From NCBI RefSeq assembly GCF_000518085.1, contig NZ_JACX01000012.1, positions 1 through 64,000 on the forward strand: a stretch of DNA of 64,000 bases, in the 5' to 3' direction. Of this stretch, positions 25,914-46,335 are shown in pieces (within the stretch, counting starts at the first letter, position 1; every line of letters starts with the position of its first letter). The notes under the pieces were generated by a model. It had not been told where the DNA came from and searched no databases. It worked only from the letters and a program-made list of their open reading frames with translations. Position numbers and translations under genes: made by a program. Source of the stretch: Bartonella grahamii ATCC 700132 (lineage in GTDB: Bacteria; Pseudomonadota; Alphaproteobacteria; Rhizobiales; Rhizobiaceae).

Positions 25914-26603
25914 ATGAATACACAAACGCCCCTCGATGCCCCTTCCATTGAAGCATGGCAAAACCTTCAAAAAGACATTGCTGAAACATGTCAAGAGCTA
26001 CAACGCCCTGTAGAAGAAATTGAACTTATCGCTGTTTCAAAAACTGTTTCTGCCGCTGATGTACGTCCCCTTTTGCAAGCAGGCCAATCTTTGTTTGCAG
26101 AAAACCGCGTACAAGAAGCGGCACAAAAATGGCTCGGGTTACGTCAACAATTTGAAAATATTAAACTTCATCTCATTGGTCCCCTACAATCAAATAAAGC
26201 CGCTGAAGCTATCAAAATTTTTGATGTCATTCAAACGGTTGATCGTGAAAAAATAGCCAAAATTTTGGCGGAAGAAATGCAAAAACAAAAAAGGCATCTT
26301 CCTTGCTATGTTCAGGTTAACATTGGCTTAGAACCGCAAAAAAGTGGTGTCGCACCGCAAGAAGTAATCCCTTTTGTCAACCAATGCAAAAACAACTATG
26401 GACTTGATATCATCGGTCTTATGGGCATCCCCCCTGTCGATGAAAACCCCGGACCCTATTTCGCGCTCTTAGCAAAATTAGCAAAACAAGCAGATCTTCC
26501 AAAGATTTCCATGGGTATGTCCAGTGACTTCAAAACCGCTCTACAGTTTGGCTCTAACGTCCTTCGCATTGGCTCTGCTTTATTTGGAAAACGCCCTGTG
26601 TAA
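25914..26603 (+). CDS. YggS-family pyridoxal phosphate homeostasis protein
   Basis: This 229-residue PLP-binding protein with an alanine-racemase-like barrel belongs to the YggS/PROSC (PLPBP) family, which buffers vitamin B6. The PLP lysine is Lys43 in LIAVSKTVSA. FAENRVQEAAQKW, LHLIGPLQSNKA and the C-terminal ISMGMSSDFKTALQFGSNVLRIGSALFG are hallmarks. It is divergent from leuS. A decayed copy of its 3' end lies about 150 bases downstream. Confidence 0.93.
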   Translation: MNTQTPLDAPSIEAWQNLQKDIAETCQELQRPVEEIELIAVSKTVSAADVRPLLQAGQSLFAENRVQEAAQKWLGLRQQFENIKLHLIGPLQSNKAAEAIKIFDVIQTVDREKIAKILAEEMQKQKRHLPCYVQVNIGLEPQKSGVAPQEVIPFVNQCKNNYGLDIIGLMGIPPVDENPGPYFALLAKLAKQADLPKISMGMSSDFKTALQFGSNVLRIGSALFGKRPV

Positions 26604-26885: not shown

Positions 26886-27480
26886 CCCCTCCCCTCTGAC
26901 CGCCTCTCCAGCAAAAGCAACATAAAAATAAATCCTTATATAAAGGCAAAATGATAAAAGAGGCATTGCGCATTCATGAAAAAACTGTCGCAAAATCAAT
27001 AATTGTAAAAGAATATTCAGCCTCAGCTTCACAAAGGCTCTTATTAAAAACACGAATTCTCTTAAACTTCTCCAACACGCGTAAACAATTTCCCCACATG
27101 CCAATGGTGTAAAGCAGGCAAAAAGAGGCTTATGGCTGCATAATACAGTAACAAAACTCTTTCATGTAAGCCACTTGAGCAAAATAAACATCTAAAATGC
27201 CCAATAGAGCACCAAGAACCGCGCTAAATAACATGATAGTAATCTATAAGGTCCAACGATAGCATAAAGGCTTTCTATGCTTTACAGAGCGTAACATACG
27301 TTCAATATTCTCCTGAAAAATAAAAGAACGAATCCCGTGCATATGCGCATAATATATGCAGGCAAAACAATGGCAATGAGACCGATTTCAATAACGATAT
27401 TTCTTTATCATTATTCCTTTATCGTTCGCATAAACAAAGAGAAAAAACTTCAACTTTTCAGATGCACATTTTTCTAATTT
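26886..27480. other. Gap with a possible decayed membrane-protein gene (minus strand)
   Basis: Read on the minus strand from about 27420 to 27130, three short open pieces in different frames look protein-like. One contains IEIGLIAIVLPAYI, the next SFIFQENIERMLRSVKHRKP, and the last MLFSAVLGALLGILDVYFAQ. Together they suggest a membrane protein broken by frameshifts. No family is recognised. The remainder is featureless. Confidence 0.3.
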
Positions 27481-27719
27481 TAAAATTTAATTAAGAAAAA
27501 ATATGGTGTAATTTATTGTATTTTAAAATATTATAAATAATATTATTATCTTATTAAGAATAATAATTTCATATATACATAATTTATATATTATTTATAC
27601 ATTATTTTTATTGTTATTTTTAAAGTTTATCTTTGATATTTCTCTAAAATACGTGATAGCCATTTGAAATGTATCATTGTGATACTACTTTTAATGTAGA
27701 TAATTCAAGGAGGATTAAA

Positions 27720-27990
27720 ATGAGAAATTTTGCTTCAGGTTTAACTTATACGATAAATGATTCAACACCTATCATTTATGGAAATGCATGTAGTACTAAT
27801 GATTTTATGTATCACATAGGTGCAGGGGGGGGTGCATGGAGCTTTTGATGGAGGAATAGGCGGGGCATTTGGCGGTATGTCTGGAGGACCAGCGGGGGCG
27901 CTTTCAGGTGGACTCTTAGGTGCCGCAGGTGGATTCTTAGCAGGTGGTCTTTGGGCTTTTGGAGAAAAAGCTTGGGAGTGTTGGTTCTAA
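27720..27990 (+). pseudogene. Gly-rich hydrophobic peptide gene interrupted at a G8 tract (bacteriocin-like, possibly phase-variable)
   Basis: A strong ribosome binding site (AAGGAGG) precedes ATG 27720. The frame reads MRNFASGLTYTINDSTPIIY and continues to a run of eight G (27825-27832), after which it ends early at TGA 27846. If the run had seven G, one 89-codon frame would run to TAA 27990. Its second half is GAFDGGIGGAFGGMSGGPAG and more of the same Gly-zipper type. A short leader-like part followed by a Gly-rich amphipathic or membrane part recalls unmodified class II bacteriocins of the double-glycine type. This is inference, since no leader consensus is firmly matched and no exporter lies next to it. 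It could equally be a dead gene. Local base composition is far more AT-rich than that of the core genes. Confidence 0.5.
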
Positions 27991-28010: not shown

Positions 28011-28096
28011 AGATATCTCTGAAATTAGTATTTTTGTAAATATATTCGAAAGAATATACCAAATATCTATGGACAAAATAATTTTCAGAGATATCT
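28011..28096 (+). other. Long inverted repeat between the Gly-rich peptide gene and the next small gene
   Basis: AGATATCTCTGAAATTA at 28011 pairs with TAATTTTCAGAGATATCT ending at 28096, a stem of about 17 base pairs with one bulge. Within the loop, TATATTC and GAATATA form a second hairpin. It could act as an attenuator, a processing site or a transcription barrier between the two reading frames. There is no clean T tract, so a standard terminator is less likely. Confidence 0.55.
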
Positions 28097-28131: not shown

Positions 28132-28314
28132 ATGGATATTCTTTATAAAGTTGCAAGATTGTTCTTAATACTTGTTGTATTTATCCCTATATATGCTACT
28201 TTTGTTAAAATATTCGGTGGTTGGAGTTGGAAACTATCTATAATAACAGGATTATTTGTGGGAATTCTATTTTTTATTTCTGATAGTTTATGTAGATATT
28301 TTGGGTTATATTAA
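28132..28314 (+). CDS. Small two-helix membrane protein, immunity-like
   Basis: This 60-residue, very hydrophobic protein has helix 1 in LFLILVVFIPIYATFV and helix 2 in IITGLFVGILFFISDSL, with GGWSWKL between them and the end CRYFGLY. No family is recognised. Size and topology match the small membrane immunity proteins that often follow bacteriocin genes, and it lies 140 bases after a Gly-rich peptide frame. A frameshifted relative follows at 28388. A weak AGGA site lies upstream. The function is unproven; a toxin of the small hydrophobic type is an alternative. Confidence 0.5.
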   Translation: MDILYKVARLFLILVVFIPIYATFVKIFGGWSWKLSIITGLFVGILFFISDSLCRYFGLY

Positions 28315-28387: not shown

Positions 28388-28589
28388 ATGACAGATTTTG
28401 CTTATAAAATCATTGAATCGCTTATAGCAACATTTTTTTGGTTTAATATATCTTTTTTATTGTAATTTTATTTCTTATAGTTGGAAAGATTCTCTAAAAA
28501 AATCATTATTAATAAGCTCAATATTCTTTCTTGTTAGTCTTTTATTTAATTATATTGGGTTATATCAACTTTTGAGAAATATTTTATAA
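28388..28589 (+). pseudogene. Frameshifted relative of the small membrane protein at 28132
   Basis: ATG 28388 begins MTDFAYKIIESLIATFFWFN and stops at 28463-28465. The next frame then carries SYSWKDSLKKSLLISSIFFL and, a little further on, NYIGLYQLLRNIL with a stop at 28587-28589. The second part resembles WSWKL...IITGLFVGILFFIS...YFGLY of the gene at 28132. A single-base slip in one of the T runs (28433-28439 or 28453-28458) would join the halves. I read it as a broken paralogue of the same peptide family. Confidence 0.45.
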
Positions 28590-29562: not shown

Positions 29563-31506
29563 ATGACTGAAAAAATTTATCCAATATCAGAAGAAATCAA
29601 AAAAAATGCGCTTATCAATGAGGAGACCTATCAACAATGGTATCGAGAAAGCATCAATGATCCAGAAAGCTTCTGGGCAAAACATGGACGATGCATTGAA
29701 TGGTTTAAACCTTATACAAAAGTAAAAAACACTTCCTTTAATGGAGATGTATCAATAAAATGGTACGAAGATGGAATAACAAATGTTGCCTATAACTGCA
29801 TTGATCGCCACCTGAAAACCCATGGAGACAAAATCGCGCTTATTTGGGAAGGAGATAATCCTTATTTTGATAAAAAAATAACCTATAACGAGCTTTACGA
29901 ACATGTTTGTCGTTTTGCCAATCTTTTGAAAAGTCGTGGCATTAAGAAAGGCGATAAAGTAACCATTTATCTTCCCATGATTCCCGAAGCAGCCTATGCT
30001 ATGCTCGCCTGCGCCCGCATTGGTGCTGTTCATTCGGTTATCTTTGCTGGCTTTTCTGCTGAGGCAATAGTAGGACGCCTTGTTGACTGCGAATCAACCT
30101 TCATCATTACAGCTGATCAAGGCTTGCGTGGCAGCAAACGAATCAACTTAAAAGACAATGTTGATCATGCTATTGAGATAGCAGCGCGCCAAAACGTGCA
30201 TGTGGACCAAGTCATGGTTATACGGCGGACTTGTGGACCCATTCAATGGATAAAGGGGCGTGATTTTTGGTACCACGAAGAGATAGCTCATGCCAAAACA
30301 GACTGCCCACCAGAACCAATGAACGCTGAAGATCCGCTTTTTATTCTTTATACTTCAGGCTCAACCGGCACACCCAAAGGTGTTTTGCATACCACAGCGG
30401 GCTATCTTGTTTATGCCGCGATGACACATCAATATGTTTTTGATTACCACCCCAATGAAGTTTACTGGTGTACAGCTGATATTGGTTGGATTACCGGTCA
30501 TTCTTACTTGGTTTATGGACCTTTATGCAATGGTGCGACTACTTTAATGTTTGAAGGCACACCAACCTTTCCTGACAAAGGAAGATTTTGGGAAATTGTC
30601 GACAAGCATCAAGTCAATACACTCTATACCGCACCAACAGCTATCCGCGCTTTAATGGGAGCAGGAAATTCGTTTGTTGAACACTCAAACAGGACATCGT
30701 TGCGTCTTTTAGGCACGGTAGGAGAACCTATTAACCCAGAAGCATGGGAATGGTTTTATCATACAGTTGGAAATGACCGTTGTCCGATTCTCGATACATG
30801 GTGGCAAACGGAAACAGGAGGGCATATGATCACGCCCTTGCCTGGTGCAACCCCCCTCAAAGCAGGATCAGCCACACGTCCTTTTTTTGGTGTTCAACCC
30901 CAAATTGTTGATGCTCAAGGCAATATTTTAGAAGGTGAAGCAGAAGGCAATCTTTGTGTTATCGACTCATGGCCAGGACAAATGCGTACGCTTTATAAAG
31001 ATCATGAGCGCTTTATTCAAACTTATTTTTCCTCCTATAAAGGAAGATATTTTACAGGCGATGGTTGTAGGCGTGATAGTGACGGCTATTACTGGATTAC
31101 AGGGCGGGTTGATGACATTCTCAATGTCTCGGGGCACAGGTTAGGAACTGCTGAAATTGAATCAGCCCTTGTTTCTCATCCCGCTGTATCAGAAGCAGCC
31201 ATTGTGGGTTACCCGCATCCCATTAAAGGACAAGGAATTTATAGTTTTATCACCTTAATGGAAGGGACAGCTCCAAATGAAGAGTTGCAAAAAGAGCTTA
31301 TTAAACATGTAAGACAAGAAATAGGCTCCATTGCCATATTGGATAAAATTCAATTTGCCCCACAGCTTCCCAAAACGCGATCAGGAAAAATTATGAGACG
31401 TATTTTACGAAAAATCGCCGAAAACGATTTTGATACTCTCGGAGATATCTCAACTCTTGCCGAACCACAAGTTGTTGAAGATCTGATTGCTAACCGACAA
31501 AATTAA
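29563..31506 (+). CDS. acs: Acetyl-coenzyme A synthetase
   Basis: This is an AMP-forming acetate:CoA ligase that activates acetate to acetyl-CoA through acetyl-AMP. The 647 residues match the family. The adenylation P-loop [11 protein letters not shown] is at 263-273, [10 protein letters not shown] precedes the hinge, and [20 protein letters not shown] and [18 protein letters not shown] are the A8-type core motifs. The catalytic, acetylation-regulated lysine lies in [10 protein letters not shown] near residue 609. It appears monocistronic and follows the AT-rich islet. Confidence 0.97.
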
Positions 31507-43630: not shown

Positions 43631-44857
43631 TTAAATCTCGTCTTCACTATGCACGTCAGAAGGTTCTGGCATCACCCCATCAGGCGAGCCGGTGATAACA
43701 ACATCGCCCTCATTAAGTCCTGAAACAATCTCTGCCATCACTTTATTATTCAACCCAACGCTCACCTGTTTAGTAACCACCTTGTTTCCCCCCACCAAAA
43801 CAGAAACCCATGCCTTATGTTCTTTTGTCTCATCGCGTAAAGCATCGCTTGGAACCAACAAGACATTTTGAGCACGCCCTAAGATAATATGAACTTGAGC
43901 AGTCATATAGGTTCGCAAAAAATTGTCCGCATTATCAACATGTAAAATTCCGTTATAATAAATAGCTGATGAGATTAAAGCACTAGACCCCCCTACCATA
44001 CCAGGATTAATACTCACATCAGCACGAATTGCTTCAGGAGCCGGCTCTATCTTTTCTAAAACGCCCTCATAACGACGCTGCGAATTCCCTAAAACCGTAA
44101 AATAAAGTGGTTGTCCAGCCTGAACTTTAAGAACATCAACTTCTGAGATTTGCGCCTTGATCGTCATCTTTGACAAATCGCCCAAAATAACAATTGTTGG
44201 CGCCGACTGAACCGCATTCACATTCTGCCCTTCTTCCACAACTGTTGCCAAAACCGTTCCCGCTGAAGGGGCAATGATGCGTGTATAACCTAAATTGACC
44301 TCTGCACTATCCACATCAATTTGTGCTTGCACAATCTGCTGTTGAAGTTGAGCAATTTGCGCCTCACGTATTTTTACTTGTGTCACAGCATCATCGAGAT
44401 TAGCCCGTGAAACCGCACGTGACTCGATCATTTTTTTCTGACGCGCTAAATTTTTCTGCGCAAGAGAAAGATGGGCTTCTTGTTCTACCAAACTCGCATA
44501 ATAGTGAGATAATGCTGCTTTTTTTCTTTTTAAATCATTTTCTTGATCTGTAGGATCAATTTCTGCCAAGAGATCGCCTTCTTTCACAACACTCCCAGGA
44601 GAAACGCGCATTGATACCACACGCCCTGTTGCACGCGCACCAACAGCCACCAACCGATAAGGACGTACAAGACCAGAAGCTAAAACACTTTCCTCAATAT
44701 CCCCACGCTTCACCACCGCGGTTATATAAGTTGGGCTAGATGTTCCAAAAACAACAGAACGCAACCATAAAAACAAGAGAAGAAGGAATATAGCAGCTAA
44801 AAAGAAGGAAAGTTTTTTGTGTTTTGTAATGAAATTTTTGAGCAGACTTTTTTTCAT
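43631..44857 (-). CDS. macA: MacA-type periplasmic adaptor (RND/HlyD family)
   Basis: This 408-residue membrane fusion protein has one N-terminal membrane anchor (LSFFLAAIFLLLLFLWL) and a lipoyl half, GDIEESVLASGLVRPYRLVA. A long helical hairpin spans about 105-190 and the second lipoyl half follows (PSAGTVLATVVEEGQNVNA). The rest is a beta-barrel and a membrane-proximal domain. Its ATG overlaps the stop of the upstream outer-membrane gene (ATGA), so it is translationally coupled. It links MacB to the TolC-like channel. Confidence 0.9.
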   Translation of the reverse strand: MKKSLLKNFITKHKKLSFFLAAIFLLLLFLWLRSVVFGTSSPTYITAVVKRGDIEESVLASGLVRPYRLVAVGARATGRVVSMRVSPGSVVKEGDLLAEIDPTDQENDLKRKKAALSHYYASLVEQEAHLSLAQKNLARQKKMIESRAVSRANLDDAVTQVKIREAQIAQLQQQIVQAQIDVDSAEVNLGYTRIIAPSAGTVLATVVEEGQNVNAVQSAPTIVILGDLSKMTIKAQISEVDVLKVQAGQPLYFTVLGNSQRRYEGVLEKIEPAPEAIRADVSINPGMVGGSSALISSAIYYNGILHVDNADNFLRTYMTAQVHIILGRAQNVLLVPSDALRDETKEHKAWVSVLVGGNKVVTKQVSVGLNNKVMAEIVSGLNEGDVVITGSPDGVMPEPSDVHSEDEI

Positions 44858-46335
44858 TTTCCTACCTTTGCACGCGAACGAGGTGCACCATCAACGACTT
44901 CCGGACGTGATACATCAACAACGCCATCCCAGCCCCCCCCCAATGCTTTCATCAACGTGATATATTGCGTAACCAAAGAAACACGGCTATCTTTAAGTGC
45001 CATTTGTGCAGAATAATAAGAGCGATCAGCATTTAACAATTCAAGAAAACTGGTATTTCCATTCTCAAAAAGACTCCGTGAAAGTTTTAAGGAATGAAGA
45101 GAAGCTTTATTCACAATGATTAGCTTTTCTAAGCGTTGATATTCTTTAGTTAATCTTACCAACGCATTTTCTACATCTTCTAAAGCTCCCAAAACAGCAG
45201 CCCGATAAGTAATAAAAGCTTGATCACGCTGTGCACGCGCAACAGCAATAGAAGCCTCAACCTGACCTCCATTAAAAAAAGGAAAACGCAGACCAGGTCC
45301 AAAAGACCAGCCAATCGTTGAATTTTTCCATAACTGATCTATCGCCGTTGCTGCTGTCGAAATATTACCTGTTAAAGTAAGTGATGGATAGCGATCTGCT
45401 TCACGCTGACCAATCCGCGCTGTTGCTTGCGCGTATTGACGCTCTGCCCGTCGCAAATCCGGACGTGTTAACAAAATATCGGCTGGAATTCCTGCTGGTA
45501 TCGGCCAGCGTGGTTGTGGAATCTTTGCATGCTTAGCATTTTTTTGTAAAAGATCCTTCAATGCCGTAGGCACACAACCAGTTAAGACAGAAAGGCGATG
45601 AACGCTCATTGCTAAATTCGCTTCCATCTGTGATATATCTGCTTCTGTATTTGCCATTTGTGCTTGCGCATTTGAAACATCGAGCTCAGAAACATCACCA
45701 GCTGTTAATCTAGCACGCATCAATTCATAGGTTTTACGTTGTGATACAGCAATTTGACGCACAATCAACAATTTCTGTTGCCAACCACGCATTTGTACAT
45801 AATTTGTTGCCACATCTCCTAACAATGTCACCATGGTAGCACGCATATCTTCCACAGCCGCATCAAGACCATAACGCGCTGCTTCAACCGCTCGTTTATG
45901 CCCACCAAAAAAATCAAGCTCCCAGCTTGCATCAAAACCACTACGGTATTGGTTTAACAATGCATCAGACTGTCCAGAATGACTACGGGTTCCTGAAATT
46001 GAATTGGACACATTTGGTAAAAGAGTTCCTACAACCTGCCCTAAACCCGCACGCGCCTCACGTACCCGAGCTTTGGCAACAGCAACATTATTATTTCCAG
46101 AAATCGCATAATCCATTAATGCATCTAGAACAGGATCATTCAAACGCCGCCACCATCCGGCAAGCGCAACTGGCTGTCCTGCAGTCTGTGCAGATTTTTC
46201 TCCCCAAACTGCTGGAACACGAAAAGATGTTTTCTGGTAATTAGGACCAACCATACATCCTGACAAAAGCAACCACAACAAGATACTAGAAAGTAATCCA
46301 CGAGAAGCGCCCCTTTTGAGATTTCTGATATACAT
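44854..46335 (-). CDS. NodT/TolC-family outer-membrane efflux lipoprotein
   Basis: This 493-residue protein has a lipobox (LLLSGC, Cys27) followed by MVGPNYQK, the standard start of NodT-type outer-membrane factors. The repeated alpha-barrel halves are visible (LDALMDYAISGNNNVAVAKA and the second half with LTRPDLRRAERQYAQATARI). It is the first gene of the operon with macA and macB and would form the trimeric exit duct. The gene-specific name is left open, because several families share this fold. Confidence 0.9.
   Translation of the reverse strand: MYIRNLKRGASRGLLSSILLWLLLSGCMVGPNYQKTSFRVPAVWGEKSAQTAGQPVALAGWWRRLNDPVLDALMDYAISGNNNVAVAKARVREARAGLGQVVGTLLPNVSNSISGTRSHSGQSDALLNQYRSGFDASWELDFFGGHKRAVEAARYGLDAAVEDMRATMVTLLGDVATNYVQMRGWQQKLLIVRQIAVSQRKTYELMRARLTAGDVSELDVSNAQAQMANTEADISQMEANLAMSVHRLSVLTGCVPTALKDLLQKNAKHAKIPQPRWPIPAGIPADILLTRPDLRRAERQYAQATARIGQREADRYPSLTLTGNISTAATAIDQLWKNSTIGWSFGPGLRFPFFNGGQVEASIAVARAQRDQAFITYRAAVLGALEDVENALVRLTKEYQRLEKLIIVNKASLHSLKLSRSLFENGNTSFLELLNADRSYYSAQMALKDSRVSLVTQYITLMKALGGGWDGVVDVSRPEVVDGAPRSRAKVGK

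What the first reader, a model, noticed from the sequence alone, without database searches (positions are those of the whole stretch)
27720..27990. Gly-rich, bacteriocin-like peptide gene switched off by one base in a G8 tract
A strong AAGGAGG site leads a frame that breaks exactly at a run of eight G. With seven G the frame is open for 89 codons and encodes a GxxxG-rich membrane-type peptide. A homopolymer at the break point is the classic layout of slipped-strand phase variation, though a simple dead gene is also possible. The AT-rich islet and the small membrane genes behind it suggest a peptide antagonism cassette, which would be unexpected in an intracellular vector-borne bacterium.
Basis: partly seen in the sequence, partly recalled or inferred. 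Interest (0 to 1): 0.7.

Follow-up and report, generated by a model that had tools for sequence, protein, structure and literature searches.

The report
Broken bacteriocin-like gene in Bartonella
A small gene that looks like a bacterial weapon peptide, with guard-like genes beside it, is broken by a frameshift at a run of eight G in this Bartonella genome; relatives carry intact copies, and the break looks more like ordinary gene death than an on/off switch.

Summary
G8 (27825-27832) lies where the frame of a small gene breaks, behind AAGGAGG and ATG. Searched apart, the halves match positions 1-37 and 35-89 of one 89-position profile. All 18 named relatives of 23 are Bartonella. The gene encodes a Gly-zipper peptide followed by 60-70-residue, two-helix membrane proteins. 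Elsewhere in these genomes, related peptides lie beside a type I secretion ABC transporter and HlyD.

Phase variation is not supported, though not excluded. The G run is in 1 of 23 aligned copies. Of 32 genomes with the cassette, 24 lack an intact peptide gene, by unrelated lesions or absence. The own genome's HlyD and second peptide locus are frameshifted too. A cluster of the broken product spans three contigs.

The bacteriocin-with-immunity reading gains support. All 8 intact peptides have an intact membrane gene. Core type A is followed by membrane family I in 14 of 14 loci, type B by family II in 4 of 6 (p=0.003; 7 of 27 loci untyped). The types switch repeatedly on the acs tree.

The parts
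25914..26603 (+). yggS-like gene, left flank of the insertion site
   Evidence: ORF; match in 71 of 71 genus genomes; yggS named from recall of the family
27065..27148 (-). remnant of a type I secretion ABC transporter gene (residues 117-144 of the own genome's 570-aa transporter)
   Evidence: tblastn, (coordinates converted from the interval)
27255..27500 (-). remnant of the same ABC transporter gene (residues 7-81), divergent from the peptide gene
   Evidence: tblastn, (coordinates converted from the interval)
27519..27722 (+). AT-rich upstream element that recurs in front of other Gly-rich peptide genes
   Evidence: blastn 68-75% identity over most of its length at several places in the 6 other loci tested, among them the own genome's contig C6
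27707..27713 (+). ribosome-binding site AAGGAGG
   Evidence: sequence
27720..27848 (+). N-terminal half of the peptide gene (42 aa), profile positions 1-37
27825..27832 (+). G8 run at the frame break, at the junction of the conserved N-terminal region and the variable Gly-zipper core
27820..27990 (+). C-terminal half in another frame (56 aa, ends ECWF), profile positions 35-89
28011..28096 (+). inverted repeat, 14-nt arms 28011-28024 and 28083-28096, perfect, 58-nt loop, between the peptide and membrane genes
28132..28314 (+). intact 60-aa two-helix membrane protein, family I (putative immunity protein)
28388..28589 (+). family II membrane protein gene, frameshifted (halves 28388-28465 and 28428-28589)
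28433..28439 (+). T7 run at the break of the family II gene; T runs at this place differ in length between copies, and two other genomes break here too
29563..31506 (+). acs-like gene, right flank of the insertion site
   Evidence: ORF; used to bound the interval; acs named from recall of the family

Best explanation
The window carries an inactivated copy of a Bartonella-specific, secreted Gly-zipper peptide gene of the bacteriocin kind, followed by one intact (family I) and one broken (family II) immunity-like membrane gene. The unit 'ABC-transporter 5' fragment, upstream element, peptide, membrane genes' sits between yggS and acs and looks like a copy of units at the type I secretion locus, where the intact transporter is divergent from other Gly-rich peptides. 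In working relatives the peptide would be exported by that transporter with HlyD and insert into membranes of neighbouring bacteria, while the small membrane proteins protect the maker (inferred). The variable core appears to be exchanged together with its cognate membrane gene. Here the reading frame is lost at a G8 run, most likely by a recent, ordinary indel. In this genome the second peptide locus and HlyD are frameshifted too, so the attack arm seems lost while part of the immunity arm remains. Shown: the family, the break, the neighbourhood, the pairing statistics. Inferred: secretion, killing, immunity.
For: The halves match one profile end to end. Intact relatives, 17 used for the profile. 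Relatives at the transporter locus with ABC and HlyD; ABC N-terminal remnants in at least 23 of 60 yggS-acs intervals. Intact peptide with start codon in 8 of 32 genomes, all 8 with at least one intact membrane gene, against 10 of the other 24 (one-sided Fisher p=0.004). Core A with family I next in 14 of 14, core B with family II next in 4 of 6 (p=0.003), with 6 changes of core type on the acs tree, no more clustered than shuffled labels. N-terminal identity up to 95% between A and B peptides whose cores are at most 55% alike. Own HlyD split over two frames; own contig C6 peptide split over three frames. Only weak partial matches elsewhere in the own genome. 43 homopolymers of 7 or more lie in 24 long open ORFs of the window.
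Against: No activity, secretion or immunity is shown. No curated family reaches its cut-off for the peptide or the membrane proteins (PADLOC not searched). The two Fisher tests ignore relatedness; cassettes with several membrane genes are more likely to keep one, and decay may remove both genes together. Core types were set by a pattern of mine after looking at the loci; 7 of 27 loci were untyped, two B loci (G024, G052) have family I next, and type A cores are nearly as unlike each other (mean 0.48) as A is to B (0.41). One gapped or cut locus each (G030 with masked bases, G020 at a contig end) is counted as not intact. Both halves are otherwise free of lesions, which also suits a switch. Another protein cluster (P0026, 2 sequences, 10 contigs) ends in the same out-of-frame tail AWSF, so breaks recur near this place (its DNA could not be fetched).
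Confidence: 0.6

Rival explanations
1. Phase variation: slippage in the G8 tract turns the peptide on and off in a living population.
For: The break is exactly at a G8, the start site and both halves are otherwise intact. G/C tracts of 8 or more are about three times commoner in the genome than the window's first-order expectation scaled up (44 against about 13). A neighbouring gene breaks at a T run whose length differs between copies. P0026 breaks near the same place.
Against: The tract is in 1 of 23 aligned copies; other copies are disabled by start loss, deletions and frameshifts elsewhere; the broken product's cluster is in three contigs and no intact allele of it was found; HlyD of the own genome is frameshifted, with no run longer than five in the overlap of its halves.
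Confidence: 0.12
2. Sequencing or assembly error at a homopolymer in a draft of 66 contigs.
For: Two breaks of the window cassette are at homopolymers (G8 and T7).
Against: 43 homopolymers of 7 or more, a C9 among them, lie in 24 long ORFs that are open (these ORFs were picked because they are open). The broken product is also in another, 1.31-Mb contig at 90% identity or more. HlyD and the C6 peptide are broken too.
Confidence: 0.07
3. The peptides are not weapons but surface, envelope or host-directed Gly-zipper proteins, and the small membrane genes are partners of another kind.
For: Weak, below-cut-off similarity to outer-membrane Gly-zipper domains; no activity data; Bartonella lives largely inside hosts.
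Against: One-sided dependence on membrane genes and core/neighbour pairing, type I exporter beside related peptides, frequent loss of the peptide with retention of membrane genes.
Confidence: 0.2
4. Programmed frameshifting at the G8 yields the full product from this copy.
For: Homopolymers can promote slippage in transcription or translation (recalled).
Against: The tract is absent from the other 22 aligned copies; no supporting structure was sought.
Confidence: 0.02

Closest known systems
Cdz system of Caulobacter crescentus and Cdz-like systems (PMC5380434; abstract, passages and the section on Cdz-like systems seen)
   Same: Alphaproteobacterial; small (under 110 aa) Gly-zipper peptides, a type I secretion ABC and membrane-fusion pair divergent from the peptide genes (at the transporter locus), a small transmembrane immunity-like protein without known homologues.
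   Different: No leader ending in G[G/A/S]; several membrane genes per cassette, of two families; the yggS-acs cassette holds only a remnant of the transporter; sequence homology to CdzC/D and CdzA/B was not tested; contact-dependent killing unknown.
Class II microcins (MccV-like; PMC9746304 and PMC11494933 seen in a search listing only)
   Same: Gly-rich peptide of Gram-negatives, type I export, small immunity protein beside it.
   Different: No double-glycine leader seen, and the ABC transporter lacks an N-terminal peptidase domain.
Microcin C-like operons reported in Bartonella, inactivated in B. quintana and B. henselae (statement seen in passages of PMC10949449)
   Same: Another antibacterial system in the genus that tends to be inactivated.
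   Different: A nucleotide-peptide with modification enzymes, unrelated to the peptides here (recalled and from the passages).
Class IIb two-peptide bacteriocins with GxxxG motifs (recalled)
   Same: GxxxG-rich helix, small membrane immunity protein.
   Different: Gram-positive families with double-glycine leaders; no Pfam or NCBIfam bacteriocin model matched.

Membership tests
Cdz-like systems (criteria of PMC5380434) | peptide of 60-151 residues | tested here: met
   17 intact relatives of 85-104 aa
Cdz-like systems | secretion leader ending in G[G/A/S] | tested here: not met
   No such conserved site at the end of the 37-residue N-terminal region (by eye)
Cdz-like systems | one or two Gly zippers flanked, not interrupted, by proline or charge | tested here: inconclusive
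   GxxxG runs on either side of a proline by eye; Pfam zipper models only below cut-off
[quoted passage not shown]
   Tail is charged but ends ECWF
Cdz-like systems | type I secretion pair (homologous to CdzAB) within about 10 kb | tested here: inconclusive
   ABC and HlyD beside related peptides at another locus, only a remnant in the window; homology to CdzAB itself not tested
Cdz-like systems | contact-dependent killing with protection by the immunity protein | not testable with these tools
   needs competition assays
Class II microcins | double-glycine leader | tested here: not met
   alignment of 17 intact peptides
Class II microcins | exporter with N-terminal C39 peptidase domain | tested here: not met
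   own transporter: membrane region 45-309 and ATPase 371-519, no C39 domain among the listed Pfam hits; the HlyB model matches from position 121
Phase-variable gene by slipped-strand mispairing | simple-sequence tract at the frame switch | tested here: met
   G8 at the break
Phase-variable gene by slipped-strand mispairing | tract kept in related copies with varying length | tested here: not met
   1 of 23 aligned copies has a G run of 6 or more at the site (by eye)
Phase-variable gene by slipped-strand mispairing | on and off states within a clone or between isolates | not testable with these tools
   no reads or isolate genomes held; protein clusters show only the broken state

The most novel reading that the evidence does not exclude
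Bartonella carries a genus-wide toxin-immunity system in which a conserved N-terminal export region stays in place while the Gly-zipper core is exchanged, together with its cognate membrane immunity gene, at one chromosomal site (yggS-acs); lineages repeatedly lose the peptide and keep the immunity gene. The G8 break of the window lies at the N-region/core junction, where other indels fall as well (G018, P0026), so it may be a by-product of core exchange.
Probability: 0.35. Interest if true: 0.62.

Novelty: new variant of a known kind. Interest (0 to 1): 0.45.

Why it matters
If the family is a secreted bacteriocin with immunity genes, Bartonella strains that share a host or a vector would have a means to exclude one another, and the spread of intact, broken and immunity-only cassettes would be a ready record of that competition. 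The core/neighbour pairing makes specific cognate pairs testable. For the window itself the result is sobering: one more inactivated copy, not a shown switch.

Tried and rejected
Pfam, NCBIfam, PHROGs and PDB searches named no family at cut-off (the PDB hits at E 0.022 are stretches of a viral protease without a passing stretch and were taken as chance). Rfam gave one match below its gathering score in AT-rich DNA, taken as chance. No terminator-like site was found, and promoter-like sites were 16 against 10.6 expected (sd 2.8), which I did not use. AlphaFold2 on an intact relative (P0004 with A2) gave a disordered N-terminus (1-21) and one long helix (26-89), mean pLDDT 77; a fold search with one helix was judged useless and not run. 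The window's own species could not be named: the genome-contig scan returned 6 named relatives and may leave out the own genome. Order-wide search: 18 of 296 other genomes drawn matched weakly (best E 1.1e-6), 15 only in longer frames; three 86-aa frames (G191, G220, G267) were not followed up. Held papers: six searches, listings read, named no such Bartonella peptide family; most subscription papers are not held. The genus-wide count of intact transporters could not be made.

Counts of the census: 60 of 71 genus genomes were fetched (the other 11, G014, G043, G044, G045, G056-G062, were not); 32 had profile matches, 11 had an empty interval of 161-260 bases, 4 had no acs placed downstream in the stretch, 13 had a longer interval without profile matches. 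Some of these 13 still hold DNA-level or transporter remnants. Of the 24 not-intact genomes, 5 have no peptide match at all.

Full report
Where it is. The window is from a Bartonella-like genome of 2.2 Mb in 66 contigs: the named relatives of this gene, 18 of 23, are all Bartonella, and the yggS product matches in 71 of 71 genomes of the genus. The exact species was not identified. The finding lies between yggS (25914-26603) and acs (29563-31506).

The observation. ATG at 27720 follows AAGGAGG by six bases. The frame runs 42 codons to a stop at 27848; a second frame, out of register with it, is open to 27990. The frames meet at G8, 27825-27832. A profile of 17 intact relatives matches the first piece at positions 1-37 and the second at 35-89, both at about 1e-18. 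So one gene is broken there and neither half has a further stop. In the own genome these halves are the only clear matches; two weak ones lie on contig C6.

Relatives. A search with four intact relatives found 23 proteins; most are 85-104 aa, and several are truncated or shortened (P0016, P0021, P0023, P0024, P0025, P0026). B. tribocorum proteins include an intact one (P0004, 5 contigs) and a broken one (P0016, 2 contigs). One UniRef entry (B. jaculi) is called 'Bacteriocin', the other names seen are 'hypothetical' or 'uncharacterized'. In a draw of 297 genomes of the order only weak, partial matches to the Gly-rich part were seen outside the own genome. The alignment shows a conserved N-terminal region with a cysteine, a GxxxG-rich core and a conserved tail ending ECWF.

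Neighbourhood. Behind the peptide lie 60-70-residue proteins with two hydrophobic segments, of two families that I call I and II. In the window, I (28132-28314) is intact and II (28388-28589) is split at a T run. The same place in II is also the break in G051 and G054, and its T run differs in length between the 16 copies shown. In front, on the minus strand, are pieces of a transporter gene (residues 7-81 and 117-144). Such N-terminal pieces are in at least 23 of 60 yggS-acs intervals. The 200-base element before the start codon recurs at other loci between an intact ABC transporter and other Gly-rich peptides. There the transporter is followed by HlyD (L062, L063, L071, L074, L075). The transporter has membrane and ATPase domains but no peptidase domain. 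I read the yggS-acs cassette as a copied unit of that locus; this is inference.

Census. I fetched the yggS-acs interval in 60 of 71 genomes. Eleven have an empty site of 161-260 bases; 32 have profile matches. Of the 32, 8 have a peptide frame that is whole and starts with ATG; 19 have a damaged one and 5 none. Damage is varied: lost start codons (for instance G027, G050, G051, G064), frameshifts at other places (G039, G068, G023) and deletions (G018). G030 has masked bases and G020 ends at a contig end; both count as not intact. The G run is in the window alone among 23 aligned copies; the nearest relative, G039, has a shorter run there and is broken elsewhere. Thus the base rate of inactivation is high and does not need a switch.

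Is it a switch? For: the tract, and two clean halves; 44 G/C tracts of 8 or more in the genome against about 13 if the window's first-order expectation is scaled up; a second gene broken at a run; P0026, whose protein ends in the same out-of-frame tail. Against: no conservation of the tract; a cluster of the broken product, 2 sequences at 90% identity or more, in three contigs of which the longest, 1.31 Mb, is not the window's; no intact allele found; HlyD of the own genome split over two frames and its other peptide locus over three. An exporter without a whole HlyD could not serve a switched-on peptide, unless another one does. Sequencing error is unlikely: 43 runs of 7 or more lie in 24 long open ORFs of the window, though these ORFs were chosen for being open.

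Is it a bacteriocin with immunity? Three results favour it. First, all 8 genomes with an intact peptide have at least one intact membrane gene, while 10 of the other 24 do; no genome has an intact peptide alone (one-sided Fisher p=0.004). Second, by a pattern set after looking, cores fall into type B (PGALMGG) and the rest, type A (GGPAG-like): family I is next in 14 of 14 A loci, family II in 4 of 6 B loci (p=0.003; 7 of 27 loci untyped, 6 of them with a neighbour: 5 family I, 1 family II). Third, on an acs tree of these 20 loci the core type changes 6 times and the neighbour type 4 times, as scattered as shuffled labels; the sister pair G066 (B, II) and G068 (A, I) differ by 0.015 changes per site in acs. 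Peptides of types A and B share up to 95% of the N-terminal region with cores at most 55% alike. This is what exchange of core and cognate immunity gene would give. Weak points: the tests ignore relatedness, type A is diverse (mean core identity 0.48), the B loci G024 and G052 have family I next, and no activity is known.

Compared with what is known. The closest is the Cdz system of Caulobacter: small Gly-zipper peptides, type I export, a small membrane immunity protein (PMC5380434; abstract, passages and one section seen). Of its stated criteria length is met, the leader ending is not, zipper and tail are inconclusive. So I do not file it as Cdz, but it may work like it. Class II microcins fail on leader and peptidase domain. 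Six searches of the held papers gave no report of this family (listings only, with passages of PMC8386478, PMC9336547 and PMC10949449 seen).

Verdict. Observation confirmed; cassette reading upheld and widened; switch not supported. The window copy is most likely a recently inactivated peptide gene with one surviving immunity-like gene.

Noticed in passing
28433-28439: The second membrane gene breaks at a T run; T runs at the same place differ in length between species and coincide with breaks in G051 and G054. A better candidate than the G8 for a recurrent indel hot spot.
   Followed up: partly
L060 1047-4075: In the own genome the type I secretion ABC gene is open but HlyD beside it is split over two frames.
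   Followed up: partly
L060 4284-5139: A long Gly-rich, internally repeated peptide gene beside the own transporter is split over three frames; relative L071 has it as one frame of 281 aa.
   Followed up: partly
L063 4023-9167: Repeated units of transporter 5' fragment, upstream element, peptide and small membrane gene, as if copied in tandem.
   Followed up: partly
G000:C14:28860-30791: Five G/C tracts of 8 or more within 2 kb, one of 15; not examined.
   Followed up: no
44933-44941: A C9 run inside an open 493-aa ORF (44854-46335, minus) near its end.
   Followed up: no
28011-28096: Perfect 14-nt inverted repeat with a 58-nt loop between the peptide and the first membrane gene; role unknown.
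   Followed up: no
G191, G220, G267 (order search): Three 86-aa frames in another family of the order match positions 18-78 weakly (E about 3e-4 to 8e-4); possible distant small Gly-zipper peptides.
   Followed up: no
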